From Eurosta solidaginis (taxonomy: Eukaryota > Arthropoda > Insecta > Diptera > Tephritidae), in NCBI RefSeq assembly GCF_040869045.1, contig NC_090323.1, positions 170,832,083-170,896,082 on the forward strand: a DNA stretch of 64,000 nt, read 5' to 3'. Position numbers and translations under genes: made by a program. Positions 10,088 through 63,441 of this stretch are shown in pieces. The notes under the pieces are model-generated. The model ran no database searches. It was not told where the DNA came from and saw only the letters and a list, made by a program, of their open reading frames with translations. Within the stretch, counting starts at the first letter, position 1; the number at the start of each line of letters is the position of its first letter.

Positions 10088-11672
10088 AAGTAAGGACGGG
10101 ACTGTCTTCGGTTGTGCCGAAGACTTCATACCTTTCATGAATGGGGCTGAATAATAATCTTATCCCATTCGTAATCTCCAAATAATCGGCTGTATAAGAT
10201 ACGAAAAGTGAACAGATGTACATACCAAAGCGATTTTTAAGATAAATATAAAATAAAACAAATAAAGGTGTCTAAGTTCGGGTGTAACCGAATATTATAT
10301 ACTCAGCGTGCGCTTCAATTGTACATTTCATTTCAGATAAATTACTTTTCTACATAACACGTGGCACCTCCCGTTAAAAAAAAAAATGTCTCCTCATTTC
10401 CTCTTACAATCAAACTTGATAAGTGAAATATCATTGATTCAAAACTATTTCTTGCTAAGTTATAGCTTATTATTCTAGCCTACGGCCCTGTTAAACTTGT
10501 TTTATATCGAATTTGCCGTGGTCTTTAACCGATCCCGTCCATTTTTACTAGAAATAATTTCCGTGTGTACACAATTTCAATACGATATGTTAATTTTTCT
10601 TCCAGTTATGACCCCGAAACATAGAAAATTGCTTAGTCATAAAAAGGGCGGGGCCACACCCATTTTCAAAAATTTTAATGTTTTCCAATTTATTGTTATA
10701 AAGTTTTCGAAATTTTTATCAAGAGTCTCAATATCAGTCCACATGTCAAATTTCAACATTCTAGGTGTATTATTTACTAAATTATCAGTTTTTTTGTGTT
10801 TTCCAAAATTTTATATATATAAAAAGTGGGCGTGGTTATCATCCGATTTCACTCATTTTCAATACCAATCTATTCTGGGTCCAGATAAGCTAGTGTAATG
10901 GACGGACGGACGGACGGACGGACATGGCTCAATCAAATTTTTTTTCGATACTGATGATTTTGATATATGGAAGTCTATATCTATCTCGATTCCTTTATAC
11001 CTGTACAAACAACCGTTATCCAATCAAAGTTAATATACTCTGTGTGCAAAGCACGCTGAGTATAAAAATAGGTAGGTACTTTGTGAGGATGCAAAGTTTA
11101 ATGTTTTTTGTGGCCTGCATGAAATAGCTATGCCCATGAATCACTTATCTCAACAATATATGACACAAACCTAATGTTTTGATGAAATTTGAAGCTTCTA
11201 GTCGTATAAAATGGGGCAGTAATTACGAAAAACTTATCTGAATAATCGGTTGTGGGGGGTATATATACGACGGATGCCATCCGGTTTTTTAGAATAAAAT
11301 ATGTGCAGTATACGAAAGCATATGTGTGTTTTTGAAGCTTCAATCTGATAAATTGACGAAGATATCCTAAAAAAAACCTCTATTCTGAAAAATCGGAGGA
11401 TATATGCTATAGTGGTCCGATCCGGCCGGTGGCGACAAATGTCTAATCGGACACCTAAATTTACTCGCTCGCCAAAATTTATCAAGATATCTCAAAAATT
11501 GAGGGACTAGTTTGCATACAAACAGATAGGCGGGCATGGCTAAATCAACTCAGCTCTTCATCCTGATCATTTTGGTATACTTATTATAGGTCTATCTATT
11601 TTCCTTTAAGGACTTACAATTTTGACATTCGTGGCAAATTTAATATACCATTTCATTTTCATAAAAGTTATA
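10088..11672 (-). mobile_element. Family-2 rolling-circle-like repeat, copy 1 (contains copy A)
   Basis: The left part (10,088-10,258) has a hairpin at 10,104-10,124 (stem GTCTTCGG/CCGAAGAC) followed by TTCATACCTTTCATGAAT, exactly as in copy 2 at 36,226. The right part (11,069-11,672) matches 39,250-39,545 (AGTGGTCCGATCC, GACTAGTTTGC, TTTAATATACCATTTCAT). A family-1 element lies between the two. No protein is encoded. The architecture resembles Helentron/DINE-type non-autonomous elements; that identity is inferred. Confidence 0.65.
10259..11068 (-). mobile_element. Family-1 repeat, copy A (divergent subterminal repeats)
   Basis: On the plus strand it starts with the terminal hairpin GTTCGGGTGTAACCGAA and ends at CTGAGTATAAAAA. 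Its subterminal pair is ATACTCAGCGTGC (10,299) and GCACGCTGAGTAT (11,051): both sides differ from the usual CAGTTGAG/CTCAACTG, yet stay complementary. It contains the conserved GTGGGCGTGG word and a GGAC microsatellite at 10,898-10,923. It has no tandem array and no gene; the frame at 10,497-10,898 is a chance frame through repeat sequence. Confidence 0.75.
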
Positions 11673-11976
11673 AAAATGTGTCATAAATGTATGAATTTAA
11701 CCACCCGTGTCAGGTTAACTCTAGAGTTGAAAAGTTAACTTGTTCTTCTGCAATTGGGCCTAACTAGTTGAACAGCAATACAAATAAATCGAAAATGTTT
11801 TAAACCAAAGAAAACCAAACTTAAAAAATTTCGTATAATTTCAAAAGTAATGCATGCAAGAAGGCTTCGCGACAGGTATTTGTATGTTCGAATTTTAAAA
11901 TATCGAAATGGTAATCATCTTCATACATTCGGCTTTAAGGCCGGATTTATTAAAGACTCTTTCCCAGTGACGGCCG
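11673..11976. other. Unassigned sequence
   Basis: About 300 AT-rich bases; nothing recognised. Confidence 0.4.
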
Positions 11977-12225
11977 CCGTGGAGTGGTGAGGCCCCTCGG
12001 CAGTGATTTGGCAAACACTCCGAGTATATTTCTGCCATGAAAATCTTCTTAATGAAAACTCATCTGCCTTGCAGATGCCGTTCGGAGTCGGCATAAAACA
12101 TATAGGTCCGGTCCAGCCTATTTGTAGGAAAACAAATTAAAATAACGAGCAGTATGCAAACTGGAAGAGTAGCTCGGCGAAAACTCTGTTCGGAGGTACA
12201 TATATCGCGCCAGTGCTTTGGTATA
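11977..12225 (+). mobile_element. tRNA-derived SINE, copy S2 (internal deletion)
   Basis: Starts GACGGCCGCCGTGGAGTGGTG, then jumps directly to the body (CCCCTCGGCAGTGATTTGGCA...GGAGTCGGCATAAAACATATAGG). The rest of the tRNA-like head, including the B box, is missing, so the Pol III promoter is lost. Confidence 0.75.
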
Positions 12226-13163
12226 CAAATGTGTTCAATGAATCAGTTTGGTACCGTCTTGATACGCAGAGTTTGGGGAAAAAAATTTGAAACTAGCTTG
12301 TACGAAAAATGACTAAAAAACACAAACAATAAGACGAACAGAAATAAAATGGATATATGGTTGTAGATTGCGAGTGAACAAAAAAGCAATAACTAGCCTT
12401 AATCTTAAGAGAAGAAGAAAATGTAAAGTGAACCATTAACACATTCGAACAAACAAGATGTCACCCAAGCGCTTTTTAGAATAGAATATAATTGTTTGAG
12501 GTAATTCACTAGTACCTATACATCTATTGCGCCCTCTTCCCTTCACTAAACCCCGACCAAGCCGAGCACCCTCAGAAAACAACTCTATTTAAAATTCTTT
12601 TAAAATTTTAGGGCCTTGGCAATGTCGCCCTAACGTCCGTTTACACCATATTTAGCTTGACTGGAAATAAAAAGAACTATAGAGAATTGAAAAAGAAAAG
12701 GAGAAAGAGACTGAGAAAGGGATAGATTTAAACGAATATAGAGAGATAGGAATAGATGAGGAAAAGACGAAAATTGAGAAAGGGATGCAGAGTATGAGAA
12801 AGGCAGAGGGAGGAGTGAATAAAAGGATAAGGAAAAGGGGGAGAGGGGAGGCGGGAGAGTAAGAGGTAAACACTTCTTGAAATTAAATAGATATACCAAA
12901 GTAGGAGCAGAACACCATCTGCCGGGCCTGCTAGTTAAATATACTTCGCAAGTATGTTATACGTACCATACTTACATACATGCGTATATACTTATCCTAA
13001 TGTACATACATATATATACCAACGTCGACGTCTTATGGTGTTAATTGCTTCTAGCTTTCACCACCCGTCATAACTTACCTATAAAGAAAAGGAAATTATG
13101 GAAATTAATTAATTAAACTACATACAGTTTGCAACAACACTAAACAAATTTAGATATACATAT
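12226..13163. other. Unassigned sequence with purine-rich tract
   Basis: 12,655-12,870 is almost pure A/G on the plus strand (GAAAAAGAAAAGGAGAAAGA and similar), which makes long but meaningless minus-strand frames rich in Ser, Phe, Leu and Pro. The rest is AT-rich with CATACATA microsatellite near 12,970-13,020. No gene seen. Confidence 0.55.
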
Positions 13164-13370
13164 GAAAGTGATGGAAAAAATAATAGGGCCATTCCTATGT
13201 TCTATTTATGTAGATTTTAATTTTATTTTGTTACAACCAACAGATAAATCACTGTGCTGAATGGTGCCTTGCTTACTAAAAACGTTTGACATAGCAGGCT
13301 AAGCACCTGTAAAAAACAACATTTCTGGCTGCTTTGTTATTTTTAGTTGGAAAAAGTAATAGGGGCAAAA
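13164..13370 (+). repeat. Left inverted terminal repeat with two direct repeats (Tc1-like)
   Basis: Outer repeat at 13,172-13,191 and inner repeat at 13,348-13,367, about 176 bp apart. The right end has the same pair in reverse, about 183 bp apart. In Tc1-like elements of IR/DR type these direct repeats bind transposase. Confidence 0.75.
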
Positions 13371-14109: not shown

Positions 14110-14473
14110 ACTGTATGCAATATTTGTTCCAAATATGAGCCAAATCGGGCATCATAGGTCGCTTTCTATTCATGTATGTATTATGTGTTCCAAATATGGA
14201 CCAAATCAAATCGGACCACAAATACGATTTTTGTGAATATCTAGAGCCTTGCGCCACCTAGCGGCGATTTTTTTGATAGGTCGCTTTCTATTCTTGTATG
14301 TATTATGTGTTCCAAATATGGACCAAATCAAATCGGACCACAAATACGATTTTTTTTTTACAGGTCGATTTATATTCGTGCATGTATTACGTGTTCCAAA
14401 TATGAGCCAAAGCGGACCACAAATGCGAATTTTGCGAATATCTAGATCCTTGCGCCACCTAGCGGCGATTTTT
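14110..14473. repeat. Tandem repeats of about 120 bp
   Basis: Units built of TTCCAAATATGAGCCAAATC, CACAAATACGATTTTTGTGA, CCTTGCGCCACCTAGCGGCG and TAGGTCGCTTTCTATTC. Spacing of the TTCCAAATATG word is 122 bp, then a short unit of 83 bp. The same units recur at 34,970-35,330. Confidence 0.82.
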
Positions 14474-17185
14474 ATACTCAGTTGAGCAGAGCTCACAGAG
14501 TATATTAACTTTGATTGGATAACGGTTGGTTGTACAGGTATAAAGGAATCGAGATAGATATAGACTTCCATATATCAAAATCATCAGTATCGAAAGAAAA
14601 TTCGATTGAGCCATGTCTGTCCGTCCGTCCGTCCGTCTGTCTGTTAACACGATAACTTGAGTAAATTTTGAGGTATCTTGATGAAATTTGGTATGTAGGT
14701 TCCTGGGCACTCATCTCATATCGCTATTTAAAATGAACGATATCGGACAATAACCACGCCCACTTTTTCGATATCGAAAATTTCGAAAAATCGATAAAGT
14801 GCGATAATTCATTACCAAATACGGATTAAGCGATGAAACTTGGTAAGTGAGTTTAACTTATGACGCAGAATAGAAAAATGATAAAATTTTGGACAATGGA
14901 CGTGGCACCGCCCACTTTTAAAAGAAGGTAATTTAGAAGTTTTGCAAGCTGTTATTTGGCAGTCGTTGAAGATATCATGATGAAATTTGGGCGGAATGTG
15001 ACTATTATTACTATATGTCTGCTTACTAAAAATTAGCAAAATCGGAGAACGACCACGCCCACTTTTTAAAAAAAAATTTTTTAAATTTAAATTTTAAAAG
15101 AAAACTTAATATCTTTACAGTATACAAGTAAATTATGCCAACATTCAACTCCAGTAATTATATGGTGCAACAAAATACAAAAATAAAAGAAAATTTCAAA
15201 ATGGGCGTGGCTCCGCCCTTTTTCATTTAATTTGTATAGGATACTTTTAATGCCATAAGTCGAACAAAAATTTACCAATCCTTGTGAAATTTGGTAGAGG
15301 CTTAGATTCCAGGACGATAACTGTTTTTTGTGAAATAGGGCGAAATCGGTTGAAGCCGCGCCCAGTTTTTATACACAGTTGACCGTCTGTCCTTCCGCTC
15401 GGCCTTTAACACGATAACTTGAGCAAAAATCGATATATCTTTACTAAACTAAGTTCACGTACTTACCTGAACTCACTTTGTATTGGCGTAAAAAATGGCC
15501 GAAATCCGACTATGACCACGCCCACTTTTTCGATATCGAAAATTACGAAAAATGAAAAAAATGCCATAATTATATACCAAATACGAAAAAAGGAATGAAG
15601 CATGGTAATTGCAATGGTCTATTGACGCAAAATATAACTTTTGAAAAAAAACTTAGTAAAATGGGTGTGACACCTACCATATTAAGTAGAAGAAAATGAA
15701 AAAGTTTTGCAGGGCGAAATCAAAAGCCCTTGGAATCTTGGAAGGAATACTGTTCGTGGTATTACATATATAAATAAATTAGCGGTACCCGACAGATGAA
15801 GTTCTGGATCACCCTGGTCCACATTTTGGTCGAAATCTCGAAAACGCCTTCACATATACAACTAAGGGTCACTCCCTTTTAAAACCCTCATAAATACCTT
15901 TAATTTGATACCCATATCGTACAAACACATTCTAGAGTTACCCTGGTCTACGTTTATGGCGATATCTGGAAAAGGAGACCACATATAGAACTAAGGCCCA
16001 CTCCTTTTTAAAATACTCATCAACACCTTTCATTTGATACCCATATCGTACAAAAAATTCTAGAGTCACCCCCGGCCCACCTTTATGGCGATATCTCGAA
16101 AAGGCATCCACCTATGAAACTAAGGCCCACTCTCTTTTAAAATGCTCATTAACACCTTTCATTTGATACCCATATCGTACAAACAAATTCTAGAGTCACT
16201 CCTGGTCCACCTTTATGGCGATATCGCGAAAAGGCGTCCACCTATAGAACTAAGGCCCACGCTCTTTTAAAATACTCATTAACACCTTTCATTTGAAACC
16301 CATATCGTACAAACGAATTCTAGAGTCACCCCTGGTCCACCTTTATAGAACTAAGGCCCACGCCCTTTTAAAATACTCATTAACACCTTTCATTTGATAC
16401 CCATATTGTACAAACGCATTCTAGAGTCACCCCTGGTCCACGTTTATGGTGATATCCCGAAAAGGCGTCCACCCATAGAACTAAGGTCCACTCCCTTTTA
16501 AAACAGTTATTAACAGCTTTCGTTTGATACCCATATTGTACAAACGCATTTTAGAGTCAACCCTGGTCCACTTTTATAACGATATTCCGAAAAGGCGTCC
16601 ACCTATAGAACTAAGGCCCACTCCCTTTTAAAATACTCACTAACACCTTTCAATTGACACCCATATCGTACAAACAAATTCTAGAGTCACCCCTGGTCCA
16701 CCTTTATGGCGATATCTCGAAAAGGCGTCCACCTATAGAACTAAGGCCCACGCTCTTTTAAAATACTCATTAACACCTTTCATTTGAAACCCATATCATA
16801 CAAACGAATTCTATAGTCACCCCTGGTCCACCTTTATGGCGATATCTCGAAAAGGCGTCCACCTATAGAACTAAGGCCCACGCTCTTTTAAAATACTCAT
16901 TAACACCTTTCATTTGATACCCATATTGTACAAACGCATTCTAGAGTCAACCCTGATCCACCTTTATGGCGATATCCCTAAATGGCGTCCACCTATAGAA
17001 CTATGGCCGACTCCCTCTTAAAATACTCTTTAATACCTTTCATTTGATACACATGTCATACAAACACATTCAAGGGTTACTCTCGGTTCATTTTCCTACA
17101 TGGTTATTTTCCCTTATATTGCCACCATAGCTCTCAACTGAGTATGTAATGTTCGGTTACACCCGAAATTAACCTTCCTTACTTG
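14474..17185 (+). mobile_element. Family-1 repeat, copy B (long, with tandem array)
   Basis: Starts ATACTCAGTTGAGCAGAGCT and ends with CTCAACTGAGTAT, the hairpin TTCGGTTACACCCGAA and CCTTCCTTACTTG. It has the GTCC microsatellite at 14,619-14,637, three CCACGCCCACTTTTT words and a tandem array at 15,860-17,090. The foldback element at 35,343 lacks it, giving an empty site: copy B sits inside a run of T with no other target duplication visible. No gene. Confidence 0.82.
15860..17090 (+). repeat. 130-bp tandem repeat array in copy B
   Basis: About ten units containing CATTTGATACCCATATCGTA, TTCTAGAGTCACCCCTGGTC, TTTATGGCGATATCTCGAAA and CTCCCTTTTAAAATACTC. Spacing of the TTTGATACCC word is 129, 129, 130, 101, 130, 130, 130, 130, 130. 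The 101-bp unit lacks the GGCGATATCTCGAAAAGGCG part. Confidence 0.9.
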
Positions 17186-17364
17186 TTTTTCTTATTATTG
17201 CATTGTCATCGGGTTCTGAACTATATTCCAAGTTTCAAGCTTGTAGCTTATCGGGAAGTTACTTAAATTTCAATTACAAGATTCGTTCACAACGGCCGTG
17301 CATGCGGCCGTGCAGCCTGTCAACTCAAGCTAAATAAAACCGTTTAAAAAAACAAAAAACCGAA

Positions 17365-20151: not shown

Positions 20152-20324
20152 TATATATATAATAATGGTAATCTGCAAGAAAAAATATGGTGCAGAAGTT
20201 GGCATTTACAGCGTTATTCGCGTCAACCATTCGTGTGCTGCTGCAGAACCTTGATACAATTGTTTGTTATAAAAAACTGAAGAGTTCATTGAACAGCTGA
20301 AATGACATTATATAAAACATATTT

Positions 20325-21300
20325 ATACCCTGTACTTGCACAGGGTATTATGCCTTTGATTGGATAAAAGTTGGTTGTACAGGTATAAAGGAGTCGATTC
20401 CATATATCAAAATCATCAGTATCGAAGAAAAATTTGATTAAGCCATGCCCGTCTGTTAAAAGGATAACTTTTGCAAATATTGAAATATCTTCAACAAATT
20501 CGGTATGCGGACTTACCCAGAAGAGATTGGTATTGGAAATGGCCGGACTAGGACGATAACAACGCCCACTTTTTCGATATCGAAAATTTATAAAAATAGA
20601 AAAATTGAGATAATTCAAAAACGTATACCGCTAATGACATTTGGTAGGTGGATGTGTTTTATGACGCAAAATATAAATTCCATAAAATTGTGGAATATGG
20701 GCGTGGTACCACCCACTTTTAGAAGAAGAAAATTTGGAAGTTTAACGAGCCGTAAATGAAAAACTGTTAAAAATATTACATTGAACTTTGGTAGAGACAC
20801 TATCCTTGCCAAATTATATAGACTGAGTGAAGATAATCAAAATCTGTTAAAGACCGCGCCCACTTTTCAAAAAATCTAACCTTAACAAAATCTAACCTTA
20901 ACTCTATGGTATTTAACTGTTTTTGACTGATATTCCACTTCAGTAGTGGTATGGTTGAGCTAAGAGCAAAGGTTAGGTTTGAAAATGCGTGTGACAAGCA
21001 ACTTTTTGTTCATCTTTCCAAAATACTTTTAATGCCATAAGTCAAACAAAAATCTCACAATTCAAACGAAATTCGGCATAAACATTTTTTTTATAGCTAC
21101 AACTGTTAAACTGCATTTTTACCCGCTCAATTTCACTAGTGGTAGCCTCTGTATCATTTTTGCTTCTTTTGAACGAAAATGAGGTCATAATAGAATCATA
21201 TATGTATGTATTATTGCGCTGCCTTATAACACTACAAACAGCATCAACGTTTCAAGTGAACAGCTCTTCGATTTTACGAGAACTTAGACTTTCTTACTTG
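20325..21300 (+). mobile_element. Family-1 repeat, copy C (variant ends)
   Basis: Has the shared body (TTGATTGGATAAAAGTTGG, ACAGGTATAAAGGAGTCGA, AACGCCCACTTTTTCGATAT) and ends ACTTAGACTTTCTTACTTG. Its start is different (ATACCCTGTACTTGCACAGG, itself a hairpin), and a partly complementary CAAGTGAACAG precedes the right end. No tandem array. Copy D starts four bases after it. Confidence 0.65.
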
Positions 21301-21304
21301 TTTT

Positions 21305-21612
21305 TATACTCACCTGAGCAGAGCTCACAGGGTATATTAATTTTGTTCGCATAACGGTACACCGTAACAGCATAAACTAATCGATATATATATAAATATC
21401 AATATATCAAAATGATCTGGGCGAAGAAAGAAATTCATTTAGACATATCCGTCCGTCCGTCTGCCCTTAAACACGATAGCTTGAGTAAATTTTGAGATAC
21501 CTTAATGAAATTTAGTATGTAAGTTCCTGGGTTCGCTATTTAAAATAAACGATATCGGACTATAACCACGCCCACTTTTTCGATATCGAAAATTTCGAAA
21601 AACAGAAAAATT
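21305..21612 (+). mobile_element. Family-1 repeat, copy D (3' truncated)
   Basis: Starts ATACTCACCTGAGCAGAGCT and matches the family through GTCCGTCCGTCTG (21,450) and CACGCCCACTTTTTCGATAT, then stops matching at about 21,612. It lies head-to-tail behind copy C, separated only by TTTT. Confidence 0.72.
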
Positions 21613-25283: not shown

Positions 25284-26361
25284 TCACACAGAGTATATTA
25301 ACTTTCGTAAGATAACGCTTGGTTGTACATGCATAAAGGAATTGAGATAGATATAGACATCCTTATATCAAATCATCAGTATCGAAAAAAAAAAATTTGA
25401 TTAAGCCATGTCCGTTCGTCTGTCCGGCTGTTAACAAGATAACTTGAGCAAATATTGAGATATCTTCAGTAAATTTGGAACTCGGCCGTATCTGGACCCA
25501 GAATAGATTTTTATTGAAAATGAGTGAAATGGGATGATAACCACGCCCGCTTTTTATATATATAAAATTTTGGAAAACAAAAAACCTGATTATTTAGTAA
25601 ATAATACACCTAGAATGATGAATTTTAATGTGTGAGCTGATATTGATACTATTGATAAAAATTTGAAAACATTTTTGAAAATGGTCCTAGCACCGCCCAA
25701 TTCTGATAAAATCAATTTTACAAATATTATTAATCATAAATCAAAACCCGTTAAACCTATCATAACGAAATTCGGCAGATGGCTGGCCTTTTTTGCTTCG
25801 AAGAACAATTACTGAAAACGGTTAAAGACCACGCCCACTATTATATAAAAGGTCGTGGACGAATATAATTAGCTATATATATGCAAAAAAGAGTTTCATA
25901 TTAATTATATTTCTTTTCCCGAGTGGAATTATAACAAAAAATAGGGAAAACTTCAAATTTTTGAAAATGGCATGGCACCGCCCCTTTTCTGACTGAGCAA
26001 TTTTCTATGCTTAGGGAGCCATAACTCGAAGAAAAATTATCGGATCATGAAAATATTGGGTACACATATTTTCCTTATAGCAGGATATAAAAAAAGTGGA
26101 CGGGATCGGTTAAATAATACGCCCACTTTTATATAAAAGAAGAGGGTCGTAGGCTAGAACAATAAGCTATATCTTAGCGAAAAATAGTATTTAATCAATG
26201 GTATTCCACTCACCAAGTTTTATTGTAAGAGAAAGACATTTTTTTTAAATAGACGGTGCCACGAGTTATGTAGTAAAGTAATTTATATGAAATGAACTGT
26301 ACAACTGAAGCTCCGGGTGAGTAAATAATGTTCGGTTGACCCGAACTTAGACACTTACTTG
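25284..26361 (+). mobile_element. Family-1 repeat, copy E (5' end trimmed)
   Basis: Begins within CACACAGAGTATATTAACTT, lacking the usual ATACTCAG start, and ends TGTTCGGTTGACCCGAACTTAG then ACACTTACTTG. It carries ACCACGCCC words and AAGACCACGCCCACT, but no 130-bp array. It appears inserted in the TTTCGGAA-rich tract. Confidence 0.72.
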
Positions 26362-43018: not shown

Positions 43019-43020
43019 TT

Positions 43021-46865: not shown

Positions 46866-48430
46866 CAAGTAAGGAAGGCTAAGTTCTGGCGTAACCGAAC
46901 ATTACATACTCAGCTGAGAGCCTTGGAGACATAATAAGGGAAAATCACCATGTAGGGAAATGAACCTAGGGTAAACCTGGAATGTGTTTGTATGACCTGG
47001 GTATCAAATGGAAGGTATTAAAGAGTATTTTAGACGGGACTGGGCCTTACTTCTATAGGGGGACGCCATAAATATGGAGCAAGGTTAAAGGTGGACCAGA
47101 TATATCGCCATGAAGGTGGAGCAGGGGTGACCCTAGAATGTGTTTGTACGATATGGGTATCAAATGAAAGGTGTTAATGAGTATTTTAGAAGGAAATGGG
47201 CTTTAGTTCTATAGGTAAACGCCTTTTCGAGATATCGCCATAAAGGTGGACCTGGGGTGACAAATTAAAGGTATTAATAAGGGTTTTAAAAGGGAGTTTT
47301 TATGTGAAGGCATTTTCGAGATATCGACCAAAACGTGGACCAGGGTGACCCAGAACATCATCTGTCGGGTACCGCTAATCTAGTTATATATGTAATGCGA
47401 TGAACAGCATTCCTGCCTTGATTCCAAGGGCTTTTGATTTCGCCCTGCAGAACTTTGTCATTTACTTCTACTTAATATGGTAGGTGTCACACCCATTTTA
47501 CAAAGTTTTTTCTAAAGTTATATTTTGCATCAAAAAACCAATCCAATCACAATGTTTGATCCCTTTTTTCGTATCTGGAATAGAATTATGGCATGTTTTC
47601 ACTTTTCGTAATTTTCGATATCGAAAAAGTGGGGTTGTCATAGTCGGATTTCGCCCAGTAAAGATATATCGATTTTTGCTCAAGTTATAGTGTTAACGGC
47701 CGAGCGGAAGGACAGACGGTGGACTGTGTATAAAAACTGGTCATGGCTTCAAATGATTTCGTCCATATTCACAGAAAACAGCTATCGTCATAAAACTATG
47801 CTCTTACCAAATTTCACAAGGATCGGTAAATTTTTGTTCGTCTTATGGCATTGAAAGTATTCTAGACAAATTAAATGAAAAAGGGCGGAACTACGCCCAT
47901 TTTGAAATTTTCTTTTATTTTTGTATTTTGGTGCACCACATCATTACTGGAGTTGAATGTTGACATAATTTACTTATATACTGTATAAATATTAAATTTT
48001 TTGTTAAAATTTGACTTAAAATTTTTTTTTTAAAGTCATCCGATTTTGCTAATTTTTATTTAGAACACATATAGTAGTAGGTGTAACGTTCCTGCCAAAT
48101 TTCATCATGATATCTTCAACGACTGCCAAATTACAGCTTGCAAAACTTTTAAATTACCTTCTTTTAAAAGTGGGCGGTGCCATGCCCATTGTCCAAAATT
48201 TTACTAATTTTCTATTCTGCGTCATAAGGTCAACCCACCTATCAAGTTTCATCGCTTTTACGGACAGACGGGCGGACGGACGGACATGACTAAATGAATT
48301 TATTTTTTCGCCCAGATCATTTTGATATATATAAGTCTATATCTATCTCGATTAGTTTATGCCGTTTCGAGATACCGTTCTGCGAATAAAATTAATATAC
48401 TCTGTGAGCTCTGCTCAGCTGAGTATAAAA
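46866..48430 (-). mobile_element. Family-1 repeat, copy J
   Basis: Left end CAAGTAAGGAAGGCTAAG with CATACTCAGCTGAGAG; right end GAGCTCTGCTCAGCTGAGTA. The subterminal pair is ACTCAGCTGAG/CTCAGCTGAGT. The tandem array is reduced and rearranged (46,960-47,340). The GGAC microsatellite is at 48,261-48,285. Confidence 0.85.
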
Positions 48431-49420
48431 ACAGCAACCATAAAATACATAGCTACAATAGTTTGATCATCCGTTGAAAAATTTATGGAACATTCAAAAT
48501 TGCATTGACAAAAAACAGCCATGTGTGGCATGAAAGGCGTGAAGTATCGTCCCTCATCGTCTGTCTGGCACACAAAATGTTGCACATTCAAAGACCGATC
48601 TTTTCTAACTTTAGTGCTTTTGTTGGTCGGTTATTGACTGTTTGCCTTACTTATTTATTTCCACTGCGCTATTTTATTACTGCGTATATTTGTTTAAATA
48701 TGTATATAAACGAGCATTTGGTTGTACTCATATATATACTTACATATGTATAATGTCCAGGCAATGTGGCATTATCGGCACATCACTGTCACCGCACGTC
48801 CATTTCGTTAGTCGCCAGCAATAATCCAGCGCCTTTATCAGCGCAGTAGCTTCGACCGCTGGGCTCGCGGGCGGTCAATGACAAAATTTCCGTTGTAATC
48901 ATTTACAAGTATAAAATACGCAAGTTTGCCATGCAACGCGCTACATGTTGCATGTTCTTTAATGCGCTTTCAATGTACATGCAAGATATGTTTGCATTTG
49001 TTGTAAATAATTTTTATCTATTTTTATACTTCTTAGTACATATTTCTTTTTTTTTGCTACTTCCTTATTCTCTATTATAATAGACTTTGTGCTCCTGATT
49101 TTTCTTTCCTTAATGATGGCATTAACAGTCATTCCGTTGCTTTAATTTGAAGTTGATAAAAGAGTTAGGGTGGGCAAAAAACTAAAACTTTTTTCCTTTT
49201 GGTATAGTGAAGATATTGTTCAAGACATCAAAAAACATAGCCTGCAAAAATTTTAGCTTTTTAGTTTAATGCTGAGGTACCTCAACGCGACTTTATCACC
49301 ATTTAATTTCCTATAGGAATATGTATAGGTAGTGATTTTTGTACTAAAGGTTCGAGCTCTGAGTACTACGGGCTCTGGTAAACTTTTTATAAAAACTTGA
49401 ACCTTTTATCCCCTCAACTA
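48431..49420. other. Unassigned, possibly single-copy sequence
   Basis: Short overlapping frames (48,505-48,824) without domains. 48,770-48,900 is locally GC-richer. Nothing else recognised. Confidence 0.45.
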
Positions 49421-53950: not shown

Positions 53951-54505
53951 AAAAGTTAGAAATAATAGCAATAAATATAGCGCTTGTTCAAAGTTTGATG
54001 CATTTCGAAATACAAATATAATAAGCTCAGTGCTTACTATTCTAATACTTAATTGTGTGTGACCCCAGCCGAAATAATATTTTCTCCCTTAATCTCAATG
54101 TTCTTACTTTGCCTTAACTGTCCAGTTTTCAAAATTAAGTTTAAAAAAAATTACAGTTTTTCAAAACACATATGTATTTTTTCCGAAATACCGACTGTTG
54201 AGGGGTATGTTACCTTATCTCGACTGCCGTTTTGAAAGTGCCCTATCTCAGCATATATGCAATGCAATTTGAGCGGAGATAGAGCATTTATGAAGCAAAA
54301 AACTTTGAAGCAGCGCATTTTTTTTAACTGGTACCCGAGATTGGGTGACATTCCCCCACTCACGCCTATATTTTGTTTCTTTTCAAAAACTTCATACTGA
54401 TCAAATTTTGAGGTCTCCGATTAGAGATCTTCGAATTCGCCCGAAAGCAGTTTAAAAAAAATAATAATAATAATAACCGAAATTGATTTTTGTACACTCC
54501 TTTTT
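53951..54505. other. Unassigned sequence
   Basis: Short frames without domains; an AATAATAATAATAATAA microsatellite at 54,459-54,475. Nothing else recognised. Confidence 0.5.
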
Positions 54506-55809
54506 ATACTCAGTTGAGCAGAGCACACAGAGTATATTAACTTTGATTGGATAACGGTTGGTTGTACAGGTATAAAGGAATCGAGATAGATATAGACTTC
54601 CATATATCAAAATCATCAGTATCGAAAAAAAATTTGATTGAGCCATGTCCGTCCGTCCGTCTGTCCCTTAACACGATAACTTGAGTAAATTTTGAGGTAT
54701 CTTGATGAAATTTGTTACGTAGATTCCTGGGCACTCATCTCAGATCGCTGTTTAAAATGAACGATATCGGACTATAACCACGCCCACTTTTTCGATATCG
54801 AAAATTTCGAAAAACCGAAAAAATGCGATAATTCATTGCCAAAGGCGATTAAAGCGATGAAACTTGGTAGATGTGTTGAGGTTATGACGCAGAATAGAAA
54901 ATTAGTAAGATTTTGGACAATGGGCGTGGCACCGCCCACTTTTACAAGAAGGTAATTTAAAAGTTTTGCAAGCTGTAATTTGGCAGTCATTGAAGATTTC
55001 ATGATGAAATTTGGCAGGAACGTTACTACTATTACTATATATGTGCTAAATAAAAATTAGCAAAATAGGATGAAGAACACGGCCACTTTTTAAAAAAAAA
55101 TTTTTTTAATTCAAATTTTAACAAAAAATTTTATATCTTTACTGTATATAAGTAAATTAAGTCAAAATTCAACTCCAGTAACGATATGATGCAACAAAAT
55201 ATAAAAATAAAAGATAATTTCAAAATGGGCGTGCCTCCGCCCATTTTCATTTCGTTTGTCTAGAATACTTTTAATGCCATAAGTCGAACAAAAAACCAAT
55301 CCTTCTCAAATTTGGTAGGGGCATAGGTTCTACGACGGTAACTGTTCTCTGTGAAAATGGGCGAAATCGGTGTAAGCCACGCCCAGTTTTTATACACAGT
55401 CCACCGTCTGTCCTTCCGCTCGGCCGTTAACACAATAGCTTGAGCAAAAACCGATATATCTTTACTAAACTTAGCCCACGTACTTATCTGAACTCACTTT
55501 ATCTTGGTATAATAGCCGAAATCCGACCATAACCACGATATCGATATCGAAAATTACGAAAAATGAAAAAAATGCCATAATTCTATACCAAATACGAAAA
55601 AAGGGATGAAACATGGTAACTGGATTGGTTGATTGACGCAAAATATAACTTTGGAAAAAACTTTGTAAAATGGGTGCGACACCTACCATATTAAGTAGAA
55701 GAAAATGAAAAGTTCTACAAGGCGAAATCAACAGCCCTTGGAATCTTGCCAGGAATACTGTTAGTGGTATTGCATATATAAATAAATTAGCAGTACCCGA
55801 CAGATGATT

Positions 55810-56270
55810 TTCTGGATCACCAGGTCCACATTTTGGTCGATATCGCGAGAACGCCTTCACATATACATCTAAGGGCCACTCGCTTTTAAAACCCTCATTA
55901 ATACCTTTAATTTGATATCCATATCGTACAAACACATTCAAGAGGCACCCCTGTCCCACCCTAATGGCGATATCTCGAAAAGGCGTCCACCTATAGACCT
56001 TATGCCCACTTCCTCTTAAAAGGCTCAGTAACACCTTTCGTTTGATAACCATATCGTACAAACATTCTACCACCTAATAGTCCTATAGTCCTAATGTCCA
56101 CTCCCTCTTAAAATGCTCAGTAACACCTTTCGTTTGATACCCATATCGTACAAACATCCTAGAGTCACCCCTGGCCCACCGTAATGGCGATATCTCGAAA
56201 AGGCGTCCACCTATAGACCTAATGCTCACTCCCTCTTAAACTGCTCAGTAACACCTTTCGTTTGATACCC
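55810..56270 (+). repeat. 130-bp tandem array of copy K, left of the LINE
   Basis: About four units with the local variant TATAGACCTAATGCCCACTC, CTCAGTAACACCTTTCGTTT and CCCACCCTAATGGCGATATC. The array is cut by the LINE in the middle of a unit. Confidence 0.88.
56257..56270 (+). repeat. Target-site duplication, left copy
   Basis: TTCGTTTGATACCC just before the LINE 5' end; identical to 62,263-62,276 after its 3' tail. A 14-bp duplication is typical of target-primed reverse transcription. Confidence 0.88.
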
Positions 56271-56686
56271 CTCGCGAAGGGCAGACATCTTGCCGCGATG
56301 CGAGGGCTTAGTCGATGACCACGGGACTATGCCACCCACTAGGATGCAGGTTCACATGGATCTCCATGGCTCGATGACCAAGATCTGTCCCCTCCCAATC
56401 CAGGGTGTTATGCACCACCGTGCCCATTGGATGGTTTGCAGCCGGGAGGTTAATCTGGCTGTATTTGTACGGAGCCTCTCTGACACCGGGCCGCCTCAGA
56501 GAGTAAAAATGGTCTTACCGCGGTAAGGGGCTCTGCTGCGGCGGACGACACTTTTCCCCCTTTCAATAAGGTGACCCTAAGCTGGCCTCATCTAGCAAGG
56601 GGTCGTACGAACAAGATGCACAACAAAAACAAAAAAACAAAGTAAAAGATAATTCGTCCTCCTACACAGGGAGAAGGATAACAGCA

Positions 56687-58629
56687 TTGGCATCCATACG
56701 CCCTAGTGAACGAGGGAGGGCTACCAATGCTACCAACGCTAAAGGGAAGAGCGACTTGGTGGGGGTCGGCAATAGTATGGAGGCGAAGGGAGTTGCGCTG
56801 GCAACGGCGAACGCTGACGCGCCTGCTGTTGTCGGACACCGACCAAGCGCCGGAACGGCAACCTTTTTTCCCACGGCTGTGGCAGGGGTCTCTGGACCTG
56901 GCCACTCCGAGCCAAGGGAAAACGGGGCCGCAACAGCTACTTTAACCGGGGGAGCGACTGCGTTGGAAACGACGGGTCGGCTCTCCATGGACGACAAGAG
57001 GGCAACCTCAGTCAACACAGTCTTAGGTGATCGGACGGGGGCAAGCACCAGTATGGCGGCGAAGGTAGTTGCGCTGTCAACGGCGAACACTGACGCGCCT
57101 GCTGATGCTGGGCGCCCGTCTGACGCCGGTATGGCGACTGTTCTCCCCACGGCTGTGACAGGGGTCCCACGATCTGGTCACACTGAGCCAAAGGAGAAAG
57201 GAGCCATAATGAAGACATCATCCGGGGGTACGACCGCGAGAGCAACTACGTGTCGGACCCCTTCTCAAGAAGAGTCCCACAAGGGATCGTTCCACAGGAA
57301 CAAAAGAAGGGCTGCAAAAGTCCTGTCAAGGTATGAGGGTGTTCCGCTGGAAACGCTGTCAGAGAACACCAGGAATTCGGTGGAAAAGGGCGCGAGGTCT
57401 ACTGCCGAATTTTCGGGGTTCTCTGCCAACAAGCGCAACCCGATATAAACGTCAAAGGTCCGATGAGGACATCAAACCACCGCCGAAAAGGCACCAGAAT
57501 CAGCCCGCGGTAGCCAAACCCAGCTTTGCCGAGGTAGCCAAGGGTTGGATCCTTATAGGAATCCTGGACCGAGGGAATGACCGTGGTGCAATCCCTAAAG
57601 ACCAGTGGCCGTACGTCCGGAATGAAATCGGCAACGCCGTTCTCGACGTGCTGATGGAGTCTCCAGGTAGTCCGCCGCGAGGTTCTGATGCAGGATGGTA
57701 CCAGGGCCAAATCAAGGTACTCGCTTGCGAGGACGCAAGGTCTGTTGCGCTGTACAAGGCAGCAGCCGCAAAGCTGGGACAAGTCTATCCCGGGGCGATT
57801 ATCGAGGTCGTTGCCTGGAAGTACATTCCGGCTCGGCCAAGGGCCAGGGCATGGGATCCAGCGGCACCAGAATCAGCCCGCGGTAGCCAAACCCAGCTTT
57901 GCCGAGGTAGCCAAGGGTCGGATCCTTATAGGAATCCTGGACCGAGGGAATGACCGTGGTGCAATCCCTAAAGACCAGTGGCCGTACGTCCGGAATGAAA
58001 TCGGCAACGCCGTTCTCGACGTGCTGATGGAGTCTCCAGGTAGTCCGCCGCGAGGTTCTGATGCAGGATGGTACCAGGGCCAAATCAAGGTACTCGCTTG
58101 CGAGGACGCAAGGTCTGTTGCGCTGTACAAGGCAGCAGCCGCAAAGCTGGGACAAGTCTATCCCGGGGCGATTATCGAGGTCGTTGCCTGGAAGTACATT
58201 CCGGCTCGGCCAAGGGCCAGGGCATGGGATCCAGCGGTTCCAGCAGAACCTGAGAGAATCCTCTGGATGCTGCAACTGATGAACCCGGCTCTCCCAACGC
58301 AGGACTGTAGTGCCATCCAAGTCGAGGACGCTGTAGGACGTAGGAGACAGGTCGTGTTAGCCCTGAATAAGGAAGCTCTCGAGCCCCTTAGACGGAGCAA
58401 AGGAAGAGTATTTTACGGCCTCGGGGAGGTCGTAATTCACGTATACCGTGGGGACGCACAGCGTGCATCCCTTTCGAGTGCCTCTTTGGACACGGACATT
58501 GAGGCACCCGAAGTGGAGGCGGAAATCTCCGACGCCGAAAGCCTGGTTTCCGCCACGTCAAATTGCGCAGGGACTCTGTGCAATTTGTCGATGGAGGATG
58601 CGACGGAGAGGATCCCAACATCACGGTGA
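56687..58629 (+). pseudogene. LINE ORF1 pseudogene with DUF4780-like domain and two duplications
   Basis: ORF1 proteins bind the LINE RNA as a chaperone-like partner. The start is ATG 56,687 (MASIRPSERG). The N-terminal part is Ala/Thr/Gly-rich and made of two copies of a 92-codon unit (starts at 56,774 and 57,050; SMEAKGVALATANADAPA and SMAAKVVALSTANTDAPA), so in frame. The frame changes near 57,430-57,445. The C-terminal domain (AVLDVLMESPG, WYQGQIKVLACEDARSVALY, IIEVVAWKYIPA, then ILWMLQLMNPALPTQDC, GRVFYGLGEVVIHVY) resembles the DUF4780 domain seen in insect retroelement proteins. Its first half is present twice through a 373-bp tandem duplication that breaks the frame. The first copy is read in one frame up to a stop at 57,953; the second copy continues in another frame to the stop at 58,629. 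No zinc knuckles seen. Confidence 0.78.
57491..58236 (+). repeat. 373-bp tandem duplication inside ORF1
   Basis: Unit 57,491-57,863 is repeated at 57,864-58,236 (both start GCACCAGAATCAGCCCGCGG), with nearly no differences (GGGTTGGATCC against GGGTCGGATCC). 373 is not a multiple of three, so it disrupts ORF1. The near identity means it is younger than the LINE or an assembly duplication. Confidence 0.9.
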
Positions 58630-58656
58630 TGGAGGCAGGGGAGTCTGAGCAAGCTC

Positions 58657-61600
58657 ATGCTGAGGTTGCTCCAGATAAACCTGCACAAAAGTAAGGCAGC
58701 CTCGGCTGCTCTCATCAGTCGCCTTTCTAAAGGGGTTTAAGCTCATCCGAGCTGCAGATGAAGGTAAAGTGAGAACATGCATTTTAGTAAAGTATGAGCT
58801 AAATATCTTTCTCTTGCCTAATTATAGCAATGGTGACGTCACAGCGGCCAGCTAGGCAAGCGGAGGCACCCAATTAACGCTAGCCTCCGTTTATATGCCG
58901 TACGACGCAGAGGAACCTCCTCCGCAAAAGACGGTAAAGGATCTAGTGGCCGACTCACGCAAAGGCCATCTGCTAATTGGGACAGACGCAAACGCCCACC
59001 ACGTGCAGTGGGGTAGTTCCGACATAAACACTCGGGGTGAGTCACTTTTTGAGTACCTTTTAACAACTAACCTTGTAGATTGCAATGTAGGTAATGAACC
59101 AACTTTTATTACTAAAAACCGTAGAGAGGTTATTGACCTCACTGTTTGTAGCGAAAGCGTTTATGGGTGGGTTAAAAAATGGCGTGTTCTTGAGGAACAT
59201 TCCTTTTCAGACCACCGTTATATTGAAGTAATGTTAGAGTTCTTCGTCGATCAGCCCATTGCGAGAGGTAACCCACGTAATACAAACTGGGAACTACATA
59301 ATGAGCTGTTAGCAAGAGAACTACCAGAACTGCCCCCACAAAGCCCCTCATACACGATGGAGCTAGAGGCTCTGGTATAAACCTTCAAATCGGCTTTCTC
59401 AAAAGCCTTAAAACAGGCCTGTCCATTGCCAAAACCGCGCGGTAAGCGTAAACCTCACTGGTGGTCCCATGATCTGGACCTACTTCGTAAATCCTGTAGA
59501 GAACAGTTTAACAAAGCCAAATTCTTTGATAACGAGTCACAATGGCTAGAATACAAGGACAAACTAAGAACCTACAAAAAAGTCCTGAGACAAGCGAAGA
59601 GAACTTCATGGAGAAACTTCTGCACTGGAGTCGAAAGTGTCGTGGACACATCCAGGCTATGGTGCGTGCTTTCTAAGACGCAAACAGCTATTAGCTTTCT
59701 GCGGAGACCGAATGGTACCTGGACCAGCACAGAAGGGGAAACTCTAGAGCTGCTTCTGGACACACATTTCACGGGAAATATGACCAACGCACCGGAAGTA
59801 CCTGCAGCAAACCAAGCTGTGAATATACCCATCACTGAGGAGAGAGTGAGGTGGGCAGTCAAAAGTTTTAAACCTTTTAAGGCTGGTGGACCAGACGGGA
59901 TTGTACCCGCTCAACTTATCTACTCTTTGGATGTATCAGCCAACTGGCTGCGGCACATATATACCGCTTGTTTGGCTATGAACTATATTCCGTGTGCATG
60001 GAGCAGCGCCACGGTCATATTCATTCCTAAGGCAGGCAAGGCCTCTCATTACGAGCCGAAGGACTATAGACCTATCAGTCTTTCATCCTTCGTACTCAAG
60101 ACCCTAGAGAGAATAGTTAGCGATTTCCTCACTAAAAGCATTGATAGGAATCTCATTTCGGACTATCAACACGCGTACACCAAAGGTAAATCTACGGAGA
60201 CTGCGCTACACAGCCTAGTCTCTACTATAGAAATATCCTTGTTCGAAAAGGATTATTGTCTTGTGGCCTTCCTAGACATTGAAGGAGCATTCAACAACAT
60301 AAGTCCAGACGCCGTTAACATTGCTTTAACTGATCTGGACGTAAATAGACCCCTAGTGGGACTAATTGATCAACTGCTCAGGGGATGGAAAGTGCTTTCC
60401 TCACTGGGGAAGGTTGAGATAACACGATTTGTCGCAAGGGGCACGCCCCAAGGTGGTGTCCTTTCCCCCTTACTATGGAACCTAACGGTAAACTCGCTAT
60501 TAAGAGATACTAGTTGGGGGAGCGGGAAGGTCGTGGCATATGCTGATGACCTAGCGATTATCTACAGAGGCAAGTTCCCTCAAACTTTGTGCGACTTGAT
60601 GCAGGTAGCATTGCGAGAGGTTTCCTTGTGGGCTTCCCGATGTGGACTCAGCGTCAACTCCGATAAAGTAGAGCTTGTCTTATATACCAAACGATACAAA
60701 ATACCATCGTTGAACCTACCAGAACTAAATGGGGTGCACCTAAGCCTGGCAGATAAAGCCAAATTTTTAGGCGTAGTTTTAGACAAAAAGCTGAACTGGA
60801 AGGACAACGTTATCCAGCGACAAAAGAAAGCGTACATTGCATTATATACGTGTAAAAGAGCCATTGGCAAAAAACGGGGACTCACCCCCAACATATGCAG
60901 ATGGATTTATACCGCGATTATCGGACCCATACTGCTGTATGGGGTAGTCGTATGGTGGCCAGCCTTGAGCAAGGCGTCAAACCTAAACTTGTTGAGTAAA
61001 GTCCACAGATCCAGCATGATAAGCATAAGCGGGGCTCTAAGAACAACGCCTAGCGAAGCTCTTCAGGTCATTCTTTACATCTTTCCACTGGATCTGGCTG
61101 GTCATCGAACAGCGGCAACGTCAGCCCTGCGTCTAAGGGAGTTGTCGTGCTGGAACAACAGGACCACAGGACACTCAAGTATACCAAACAAATACAGTTT
61201 TCTCCCTCCTAGCACGGATCGCTGTGCGATCACAACAGTTGCGGAAACCAACTTTAAGATAAACATACCCAGCAGAGATGACTGGACGGAGTCGGATAAG
61301 TGCCTTGCTATGGGCAACAGCATTTCCATATACACGGACGGCTCCAAGCTAAACGGGAGAGTTGAGGGTAGAGTATACTCAAGGGACCTTGACCTCCAGC
61401 TCTCATTCAGACTACCCGACCACTGCAGTGTATTCCAGGCAGAAGTTGCAGCCACAATGGAAGCCGCAGCTAGGATAGGGACATACATTGTCGGCAAAGA
61501 AATTTTTATCTTCAGCGGCAGCCAAGCTGCCATAAAATCTCTGGGCTCCCACTCGTTCAATTCTGAACTAGCACTAAACTGTCGCCGATCTCTTCAAGAG

Positions 61601-62170
61601 ATGGCTCAACAGAATCGTGTACACCTCACATGGGTCCCTGGACATAGGGATATCGAGTGAAACTGCATTGCAGATGAACTCGCTAGGCAGGGTACAACCA
61701 AGCAGGTTCTTCCTGGACAAGAACGCTTAGGTATGCCCCTATCCACATGCAAGCTAATGCTAAAAGAGCACATCTACCGTCAAGCCGACGAAAGATGGCT
61801 ACAAACACCGGGATGTCGAACGTCGAAAGAAACCTGGCCTAAATGGGATCCTAAAAGATCCCGTCACGTGTACAACCTAAGAAGGGATACAATTTCCACA
61901 CTTGTGGGGACACTAACGGGTCATTGCCTCATAGGTAAGCATGCAGAAAGGCCAGGAGCGCCTTATCGTCGTTGCTGTAGGAGTTGTAAAGAAGATGAGG
62001 AGGAGGAAAGGGTGGTTCACCTCATTTGCAACTGCCCAGCGCTAAGCGGAGCACGGCAGCGCTTTCTGGGAGCCCCAGTTCTTGATACTATGAGTCAGGT
62101 TGTGGAGCATGACGTCAAGGACCTGGTAGCTTTCATCAGGTCCTCAAAATGGTTCGAAAAGGAGAGGTAA
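58657..62170 (+). pseudogene. LINE ORF2 pseudogene: endonuclease, RT, RNase H, Cys motif
   Basis: ORF2 makes the nick and copies the RNA at the target. The start is probably ATG 58,657 (MLRLLQINLHKSKAASAAL), the usual AP-endonuclease opening. After SRLSKG the sequence jumps to FKLIRAADEGKVRTCILV in another frame: the segment that should hold the catalytic Glu (QEPW in relatives) is missing. TAG at 58,853-58,855. The rest of the endonuclease is clear: LASVYMPYD, GTDANAHHVQWG, SFSDHRYIE. TAA at 59,378-59,380, then an open frame to 61,660 in the same frame. RT motifs: DYRPISLSSFVLKTLERIV, AFLDIEGAFNN, GTPQGGVLSPLLWN, YADD at 60,539-60,550. RNase H: YTDGSKL, PDHCSVFQAEVAA, but SGSQAAIK has Gly (61,517) for the catalytic Asp; WVPGHRDIE is followed by TGA 61,658-61,660. 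A C-terminal CCRSC...HLICNCPAL motif precedes the stop at 62,170. Confidence 0.92.
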
Positions 62171-62262
62171 CGGTGTTTTTCGTGGTATCACAACGGGCCT
62201 AGTACTACTGGCTTAAGTGTGCCCTCGGGCAGCCACCCCAACCTAACCTAACCTACCTAACC

Positions 62263-62276
62263 TTCGTTTGATACCC
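62263..62276 (+). repeat. Target-site duplication, right copy
   Basis: TTCGTTTGATACCC directly after the (CCTAA)n-like tail of the LINE, identical to 56,257-56,270. Confidence 0.88.
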
Positions 62277-63340
62277 ATATCGTATAAACATTCTAGAGTC
62301 ACCCCTGGCCCACCCTAATGGCGATATCTCGAAAAGGCGTCCACCTATAGACCTAATGCCCACTCCCTCTTAAAATGCTCAGTCACACTTTTCGTTTGAT
62401 ACCCATATCGTACAAACATTCTAGAGTCGCCCTTCGTCCACCTTTATGGCGATATCTCGAAAAGGCGTCCACCTATCGAACTAAGGATTCCTCCCTTTTA
62501 AAATACTAATTACCACCTTTCATTTGATACCCATATCGTACAAACACATTCTAGAGTCACCCCTGGCCCACCCTAATGGCGATATCTCGAAAAGGCGTCC
62601 ACCTATAGACCTAATGCCCACTCCCTCTTAAAATGCTCAGTAACACCTTTCGTTTGATACCCATATCGTACAAACACATTCTAGAGTCACCCCTGGCCCA
62701 CCCTAATGGCGACATTTCGAAAAGGCGTCCACCTATAGACCTAATGCCCACTCCCTCTTAAAATGCTCAGTAACACTTTTCGTTTGATACCCATATCGTA
62801 CAAACATTCTAGAGTACCCCTGGCCCACCCTAAAGGCGATATCTTGAAAAGGCGTCCACCTATAGACCTAATGCCCACTCCCTCTTAAAATGCTCAGTAA
62901 CACCTTTCATTTGATTCCCATATCGTACTAACACATTCTAGAGACACCCCTGGTCCACCTTTATGGCGATATCTCGAAACGGCGTCCACCTATGGAACTA
63001 AGGAGCACTCCTTTTCAAAATACTCATTAACAGCTTTCATTTGATACCCATATCGTATAAACATATTCTAGAGTCACCCCTGGTCCACCTTTATGGCGAT
63101 ATCTCGAAACGGCGTCCACCTATGGAACTAAGGATCACTCCTTTTCAAAATACTCATTAACAGCTTTCATTTGATACCCATATCGTACAAACAAATTCTA
63201 GAGTCAGCCCTGGTCCACCTTTATGGCGATATCCCTAAATGGCGGCCATCCATAGAACTATGGCCTACTCTCTCTTAAAATACTCTTTAATACCTTCCAT
63301 TTGATACACATGTCATACAACCACATTCCAGGGTTACCCT
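62263..63340 (+). repeat. 130-bp tandem array of copy K, right of the LINE
   Basis: About eight units. The first five mostly carry the same variant (TATAGACCTAATGCCCACTC) as the left part, spaced about 127-130 bp, which shows local homogenisation. The last three return to the common type. Confidence 0.88.
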
Positions 63341-63441
63341 AGGTTCATTTTCCTACATGGTGATTTTCCTTTTTTTGTCTCCATAGCTCTCAACTGAGTA
63401 TGTAATGTTCGGTTACACCCGAACTTAGCCTTCCTTACTTG

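What the first reader, a model, noticed from the sequence alone, without database searches (positions are those of the whole stretch)
10259..63441. Family-1 elements: the two subterminal repeats change together
Copies end in an inverted pair lying just inside a T-rich start and a terminal hairpin. Copy A has ACTCAGCGTGC with GCACGCTGAGT; B and I have ACTCAGTTGAG with CTCAACTGAGT; J has ACTCAGCTGAG with CTCAGCTGAGT; copy C has CTGTACTTG with a near complement CAAGTGAACAG. Both sides differ between copies yet mostly stay complementary; copies G and H show single mismatches. If confirmed on more copies this is compensatory change, meaning the pairing of two ends 0.8-3 kb apart is under selection, for example for excision or replication as one structure. 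The layout (subterminal inverted repeats, terminal hairpin, microsatellite, no coding) resembles Helentron/DINE elements, but I have not seen this co-variation described.
Basis: partly seen in the sequence, partly recalled or inferred. Interest (0 to 1): 0.78.

Follow-up and report, generated by a model that had tools for sequence, protein, structure and literature searches.

The report
Rolling-circle elements with matched ends
The window holds about a dozen copies of a known kind of rolling-circle mobile element whose two ends carry matching sequences; several versions of the matching ends exist, single copies do not repair the match, and the pattern was already described in print.

Summary
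The copies are non-autonomous Helentron-type elements (HINE/DINE-1-like). Their 13-bp subterminal inverted repeats (subTIRs) come in at least four end-types. Of 21 two-ended copies 17 match perfectly over 13 bp, and 6 of 13 positions show changes on both sides. The 3' repeat of a fourth type was predicted from its 5' repeat and found in both fetched copies. The 5' repeat also pairs with an adjacent arm, so three sites change together.

'Compensatory change' fails at copy level: none of 10 paired copies with a private arm change is compensated, and an intact F4 3' repeat is about as frequent beside changed as beside intact 5' repeats (6/41, 13/67). F1, F3 and F4 cores are 94-95% identical while their hairpins are 68-76% identical, which suggests that matched end sets are exchanged or fixed as modules, probably because one Rep acts on both ends.

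This is in print: Yang & Barbash 2008, Thomas 2014, and Bao & Jurka 2013, who report compensatory changes and propose that the pairing sets the replication endpoint. These data cannot separate pairing from recognition of both ends by one protein. No autonomous partner was found.

The parts
10255..11068 (-). Copy A (type F3); 3' subTIR 10301-10311, 5' subTIR 11051-11061
14469..17195 (+). Copy B (type F1)
14474..14503 (+). Copy B 5' hairpin: subTIR ATACTCAGTTGAG and its complementary arm GCTCACAGAGTAT
   Evidence: folds at -5.3 kcal/mol, z -3.41; read
17133..17145 (+). Copy B 3' subTIR CTCAACTGAGTAT, 50 bases inside the 3' end
17152..17167 (+). Copy B 3' hairpin TTCGGTTACACCCGAA
   Evidence: stem in the predicted fold, but the whole 77-nt end is not clearly better than shuffles (z -1.41)
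15802..17071 (+). Copy B central repeats, period about 130 bp (further arrays in G, H, I and K)
20321..21305 (+). Copy C (decayed type F4); CTGTACTTG 20330, CAAGTGAACAG 21253
   Evidence: start is approximate
21301..21450 (+). 5' end of copy D (F2-like, ACTCACCTGAG), abutting the 3' end of C head to tail; 3' end not found
25285..26366 (+). Copy E, 5' subTIR lost, 3' end F3-like
29946..30277 (-). Copy F (F2 5' end; 3' repeat GGCAGCTGAGT matches 9 of 11)
36385..38599 (-). Copy G (F1, two mismatches in 13 bp)
41719..43020 (+). Copy H (F1 5' end, F2-like 3' end, one mismatch)
43016..45998 (+). Copy I (F1), abutting copy H head to tail
46858..48431 (-). Copy J (F2); 3' subTIR 46908-46918, 5' subTIR 48414-48424
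54501..63445 (+). Copy K (F1), split by an insertion with reverse-transcriptase frames
63673..64000 (+). 5' end of copy L (F1-like), cut by the window end

Best explanation
These are non-autonomous Helentron-type rolling-circle elements (HINE, DINE-1-like). A copy has a T-run start, a 5' subTIR that folds with an adjacent arm into a 5' hairpin, a conserved core with a GTCY-rich microsatellite, in several copies 130-bp central repeats, a 3' subTIR and a 3' hairpin. At least four end-types coexist in this genome. Shown: within a type the 5' subTIR, the hairpin arm and the 3' subTIR match; between types they differ together; single copies decay independently at the two ends. Inferred: a Rep/helicase supplied by an autonomous partner must act on both ends, so only founders with a matched set of ends amplify. 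Taken from a published model (Bao & Jurka 2013), not shown here: the 5' subTIR first forms the 5' hairpin and at the end of replication pairs with the 3' subTIR instead, which marks the endpoint. Near-identical cores under different hairpins suggest that end sets were exchanged between lineages or replaced as modules rather than changed base by base.
For: 21 two-ended copies: 17 perfect over 13 bp, 6 of 13 positions changed on both sides; type matrix 0,0,1,0 mismatches on the diagonal and 1-5 off it. Pairing by coordinates: F2 with F2 17, F3 with F3 10 (2 of them with a private 3' change), none crossed in that table, Fisher p 1.2e-7. F4 3' repeat predicted and found in both fetched copies; 20 F4 pairs on the right side and strand, 0 on the wrong side. 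5' hairpins of four types fold at -5.3, -5.3, -4.4, -4.5 kcal/mol. Core and hairpin identities disagree. Anatomy agrees with HINE/DINE-1 and Helitron2 descriptions.
Against: No autonomous Helentron with these ends was found. The common F3 3' end matches only 10 bp, and a 3' class reading ATTTGGCAG or close (7 of 100 rows) and copy F match 9 of 11. H is mixed, and one of the 35 coordinate pairs may be cross-type. F4's hairpin z-score is only -1.55 and the three 3' ends folded are not better than shuffles (z -1.41, -0.23, -0.57). End-type is clustered on the core tree (4 changes, shuffled mean 8.9), so plain shared descent explains much of the pattern.
Confidence: 0.7

Rival explanations
1. Shared descent only: each end-type is a subfamily whose two ends were inherited together; the match has no further cause than the founder's own repeat.
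For: End-type clusters on the core tree: 4 changes, least possible 3, shuffled mean 8.9. No copy-level compensation. At least three type changes suffice for all variation seen.
Against: It does not say why the founders of four types each have matched ends, nor why near-identical cores carry three different matched end sets. A fourth type's 3' end was predictable from its 5' end.
Confidence: 0.15
2. End copying: a new 5' hairpin is templated from the 3' subTIR (or the reverse) by strand switching or gene conversion, so the replication mechanism makes the match rather than selection.
For: The hairpin arm and the 3' subTIR read alike in the same orientation, clearest in F4 (GTACACAGGGTAT and GTACAGCTGGGTAT).
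Against: If copying were frequent, private changes would be shared by both ends; 0 of 10 were. Frequency in active copies is untested.
Confidence: 0.12
3. Base-pair compensation: single changes in one arm are followed by matching changes in the other, because the two ends of each element must pair as one structure.
For: F1 and F2 differ by one pair (T-A against C-G) at both ends; Bao & Jurka 2013 report compensatory mutations in two Culex elements; double mutants of one F4 hairpin pair number 4 against about 2 expected.
Against: 0 of 10 private changes compensated; 6/41 against 13/67, p 0.61; F1, F3 and F4 differ by blocks of bases, not by single pairs. Dead copies would not be compensated in any case, so founders could still be.
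Confidence: 0.1

Closest known systems
DINE-1 / HINE, non-autonomous Helentrons (Yang & Barbash 2008 PMC2374699; Thomas et al. 2014 PMC4067079)
   Same: 11-15 bp subTIRs near the 5' tip and 38-60 bp from the 3' tip, partial inverted repeat beside the 5' subTIR, microsatellite, central repeats, 3' stem-loop, T-rich borders; several subTIR types, three in one species (passages)
   Different: Here four end-types are counted in one genome, three of them on a near-identical core; no autonomous partner was found
Helitron2 with asymmetrical terminal inverted repeats (Bao & Jurka 2013 PMC3627910)
   Same: 5' repeat forms a 5' hairpin with downstream bases and also matches a subterminal 3' repeat just upstream of a 3' hairpin; compensatory changes and an endpoint model reported (section read)
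   Different: Their 3' repeat lies 20-30 bp from the 3' end, here about 50; the Rep group could not be tested
Helitron2_Cv and Helitron3_Cv of Calliphora vicina (PMC3630058)
   Same: DINE-1-like, 11-bp subTIRs with a partial inverted repeat beside the 5' one, 3' stem-loop (passages)
   Different: Helitron3_Cv is said to lack the 3' subTIR; sequences not compared here
Cg_HINE elements of the oyster (PMC7492417)
   Same: Several HINE types in one genome, each with its own subTIR, IR, palindrome and central repeats; modules shared between some types (passages)
   Different: Mollusc; no counts of cross-type ends in the passages seen

Membership tests
Helentron-associated element (HINE/DINE-1) | subTIRs of 11-15 bp, near the 5' tip and 38-60 bp from the 3' tip | tested here: met
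   13 bp perfect in 17 of 21 copies; about 50 bp from the 3' tip in copy B
Helentron-associated element (HINE/DINE-1) | Inverted repeat or palindrome at the 5' subTIR | tested here: met
Helentron-associated element (HINE/DINE-1) | Palindrome/stem-loop near the 3' end | tested here: met
   TTCGG...CCGAA stem read directly; fold energy of the whole ends not below shuffles
Helentron-associated element (HINE/DINE-1) | Microsatellite and central tandem repeats (DINE-1) | tested here: met
   CCGT/CTGT runs; period 130 in B, G, H, I, K
Helentron-associated element (HINE/DINE-1) | No coding capacity | tested here: met
   The five stop-to-stop frames of 100 aa or more lying in or across the ends of copies A, B, C, I and the flanks of K have no Pfam match at 0.001
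Helentron-associated element (HINE/DINE-1) | Insertion between TT without target duplication | tested here: inconclusive
   T-runs at both borders; no empty site examined
Helentron-associated element (HINE/DINE-1) | Autonomous partner with Rep/helicase/endonuclease and the same ends | tested here: inconclusive
   PF14214: 2,787 candidates, 150 scored; three loci read are canonical Helitrons
Helitron2 (Bao & Jurka) | Asymmetrical inverted repeats with a 5' hairpin involving the 5' repeat | tested here: met
Helitron2 (Bao & Jurka) | RepHel protein of the Helitron2 group | not tested
   no partner protein found
Canonical Helitron (Helitron1) | 5' TC and 3' CTRR termini | tested here: not met
   5' T-run-ATACTCAG or ATACCCAG; 3' CTTACTTGTT
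MITE (cut-and-paste) | Inverted repeats at both tips | tested here: not met
   3' repeat about 50 bases inside the end

The most novel reading that the evidence does not exclude
Matched terminal sets (5' subTIR, 5' hairpin arm and 3' subTIR) were put as a unit onto one and the same core at least twice, so that the non-autonomous core followed new autonomous partners; the three-way match (hairpin, or end-to-end pairing) is a strand switch that each partner reads.
Probability: 0.3. Interest if true: 0.5.

Novelty: new member of a known kind. Interest (0 to 1): 0.3.

Why it matters
It gives a counted case, four end-types in one genome, for a published idea that I saw tested nowhere in the passages read: that the 5' hairpin of such elements competes with end-to-end pairing to set the replication endpoint. 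It also shows that single copies do not compensate, and why covariation of an inverted repeat cannot by itself prove pairing.

Tried and rejected
Rejected: chance; canonical Helitron membership (termini); one mutated copy per variant; copy-level compensation. Led nowhere: exact scans of viral contigs and genome contigs for the 3' end, collections of viruses and prokaryotes (0 matches); Rfam at gathering scores (0); PF14214 as a route to the partner; a first end-scan script that timed out. The predicted F4 3' repeat was not found in the 6.2 kb downstream of the one F4 5' end in the 264-kb sample, where no 3' tail was found either. Paper searches: Helentron + subterminal inverted 4, DINE-1 + subTIR 5, Helentron + covariation 0, HELIANO + HLE2 0, Helitron + terminal inverted + compensatory 7.

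Rows dropped and hand steps. One search used 82 of the 100 5' rows (up to 8.97 Mb) and all 100 3' rows; 35 of the 82 found a partner within 6 kb, 47 did not. The Fisher table used 27 of the 35: it left out the CTGAG-GGCAG pair and the seven pairs with changed 5' arms, among them C1:8741398, which may be cross-type or a wrongly joined neighbour. The ten private arm changes were read by eye from the rows printed. One search used 122 5' rows (100, 22 further ones; one typed a letter short, its class unaffected) and 62 of the 100 3' rows; 14 5' rows without letters are outside 13/67 and 6/41. The 21 copies leave out C and E; the 3' arm of S8 was set by eye because the script missed it. Ends without a partner in the 264 kb were not used: four 5' ends (F4 at 78178 of the joined sequence, the truncated one at 167143, D, L), six 3' ends and a weak 5' match. 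The unchanged F4 hairpin total did not complete; about 950 is extrapolated from 44 exact rows, counted by eye, among the first 100 of 2,153.
Full report
Observation. Ten copies with both ends in the window (A-C, E-K) and the 5' ends of D and L were mapped independently. The window lies at C5:170832083-170896082 of an unnamed 1.9-Gb assembly of 569 contigs. I take the host to be a fly, by inference from the elements; no call names it. ACTCAGTTGAG occurs 36,436 + 36,369 times against 112 + 116 for the reversed pattern.

Anatomy. Read 5' to 3', a copy has a T-run; a 5' subTIR; a short arm complementary to it that closes a 5' hairpin (F1: ATACTCAGTTGAGCAGAGCTCACAGAGTAT); a conserved core; a CCGT/CTGT microsatellite; in B, G, H, I and K central repeats of period 130; the 3' subTIR; a TTCGG...CCGAA hairpin; and CTTACTTGTT. 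The 5' hairpins of F1 to F4 fold at -5.3, -5.3, -4.4 and -4.5 kcal/mol with z-scores -3.41, -2.24, -2.08 and -1.55; the last is weak. The three 3' ends folded are not better than shuffles (z -1.41, -0.23, -0.57). C/D and H/I abut head to tail, as is known for rolling-circle elements (PMC4067079, discussion read).

End-types. F1: 5' ATACTCAGTTGAG, 3' CTCAACTGAGTAT. F2: ATACTCAGCTGAG, CTCAGCTGAGTAT. F3: ATACTCAGCGTGC, mostly GCTCACGCTGAGTAT. F4: ATACCCAGCTGTAC, GTACAGCTGGGTAT. Genome-wide there are 13,540 5' ends with a base other than T after ACTCAG (F2, F3 and decayed ones together), 17,162 3' ends with a base other than A before CTGAGT, 2,153 F4 5' ends and 1,319 F4 3' ends, with 0 for the reversed pattern in each. 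F2 and F3 were not counted apart. F4 was a prediction: its 3' repeat was written from the 5' repeat, with only copy C's decayed end in view, and both fetched copies carry the 14 matching bases; two bases are added further inside. The one F4 5' end of the 264-kb sample has no such 3' end within 6.2 kb.

Joint change. In 21 two-ended copies (19 from 264 kb ending with the window, plus L042 and L043; C and E left out) 17 match perfectly over 13 bp, and six of thirteen positions have changes on both sides. The type matrix has 0, 0, 1, 0 mismatches on the diagonal and 1-5 off it. By coordinates on C1, 35 of 82 non-F1 5' ends have a non-F1 3' end within 6 kb: CTGAG-CTCAG 17, CTGAG-GGCAG 1, CGTG-CACG 8, CGTG with a private 3' variant 2, changed 5' arms 7. 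For the 27 F2/F3 pairs the association has Fisher p 1.2e-7. One of the seven others may be cross-type. For F4, 20 pairs lie on the right side and strand within 6 kb and 0 on the wrong side.

No copy-level compensation. In one search, 10 of 35 pairs carry a change inside an arm (read by eye); in none does the other arm match it. In the 264-kb sample S6, F, G and H carry uncompensated mismatches. An exact F4 3' end is found for 13 of 67 copies with an intact 5' arm and 6 of 41 with a changed one (p 0.61). For one pair of the F4 hairpin the genome has 40 changes on the 5' side only, 47 on the arm side only and 4 on both, against about 2 expected if some 950 are unchanged (extrapolated): no clear excess. 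Dead copies would not be compensated even under selection, so this speaks against copy-level compensation, not against selection on founders.

Ends and core. Mean core identity is 0.952 (F1-F3), 0.935 (F1-F4) and 0.731 (F1-F2), while hairpin identity is 0.758, 0.680 and 0.915; the groups hold 16 F1, 4 F2, 2 F3 and 4 F4 ends, one F3 being truncated. F2 forms its own branch (100/100); F1, F3 and F4 lie together in a poorly resolved group. End-type is clustered on this tree (4 changes, least possible 3, shuffled mean 8.9), which plain descent predicts. Compared by one copy per type, the 72 bases before the 3' subTIR are 19-33% identical between F1, F3 and F4 and the ends after it 68-74% (some of these stretches run a few bases into the flank); but the 72 bases are also only 44-51% identical in two of the four within-type comparisons, and 83% between F1 (B) and F2 (J). 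So different ends sit on nearly the same core and similar ends on different cores, yet the two ends of each type match. This fits exchange or fixation of matched end sets; it rests on few independent events, at least three changes among four types.

What the match means. An inverted repeat that stays complementary is the same thing as one site present at both ends in opposite orientation. Pairing and recognition by one protein predict the same covariation, and R-scape would not separate them. The 5' hairpin is better evidence for a structure, because arms and loop change while the fold stays.

Results against. The common F3 3' end matches over 10 bp only; the ATTTGGCAG-like 3' class (7 of 100 rows) and copy F match 9 of 11; H is mixed. 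PF14214 gave 2,787 candidates, 150 scored; three loci read encode Helitron_like_N-PIF1 proteins without a Pfam endonuclease match and lose their similarity after CTAGT, hence canonical Helitrons. No Helentron was found; that is not evidence that none exists.

Known or new. Yang & Barbash 2008 (passages) list five subTIRs in eleven species and three subtypes in D. willistoni, describe the partial inverted repeat, and argue function from structure kept despite sequence change. Thomas et al. 2014 (passages and discussion) make identical subTIRs the family criterion. Bao & Jurka 2013 (section read) describe the same geometry, report compensatory mutations, and propose that pairing of the two repeats opens the 5' hairpin and sets the endpoint. 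Coates 2015 (PMC4344730, passages) also mentions pairing of such repeats. The finding is a new, counted member of a known kind. One core under three matched end sets in one genome is what I did not see in the passages read; I made no search for that point.

Noticed in passing
window 412-4493 (+): Adjacent frames with SAP, gag-like, reverse transcriptase, RNase H and integrase Pfam matches: a gypsy-like LTR retrotransposon by domain order.
   Followed up: no
window 56570-62170 (+): Frames with Exo_endo_phos_2, reverse transcriptase and a weak RNase H match inside copy K: a non-LTR retrotransposon that splits K; 57490-58237 is a 99% tandem duplication of 373 bp.
   Followed up: partly
window 17461-17973 (+): Frame with HTH_Tnp_Tc3_2, a Tc1/mariner-type transposase piece, about 270 bases after copy B.
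   Followed up: no
window 34993-35339: 116-bp tandem array, three copies; related units at 14158-14474 directly before copy B.
   Followed up: no
G000 C1:64983528, C1:65401219, C1:66332527 (minus strand): Three F4 3' ends lie 1.4-1.5 kb before Helitron_like_N matches of equal score, which looks like one F4 end carried along in duplicated Helitron copies.
   Followed up: no
L039, L040, L041: Canonical Helitrons with long open Rep/helicase frames (1,115, 1,146 and 1,140 aa) and about 94% mutual identity over 4.6-4.8 kb, so recently multiplied.
   Followed up: partly
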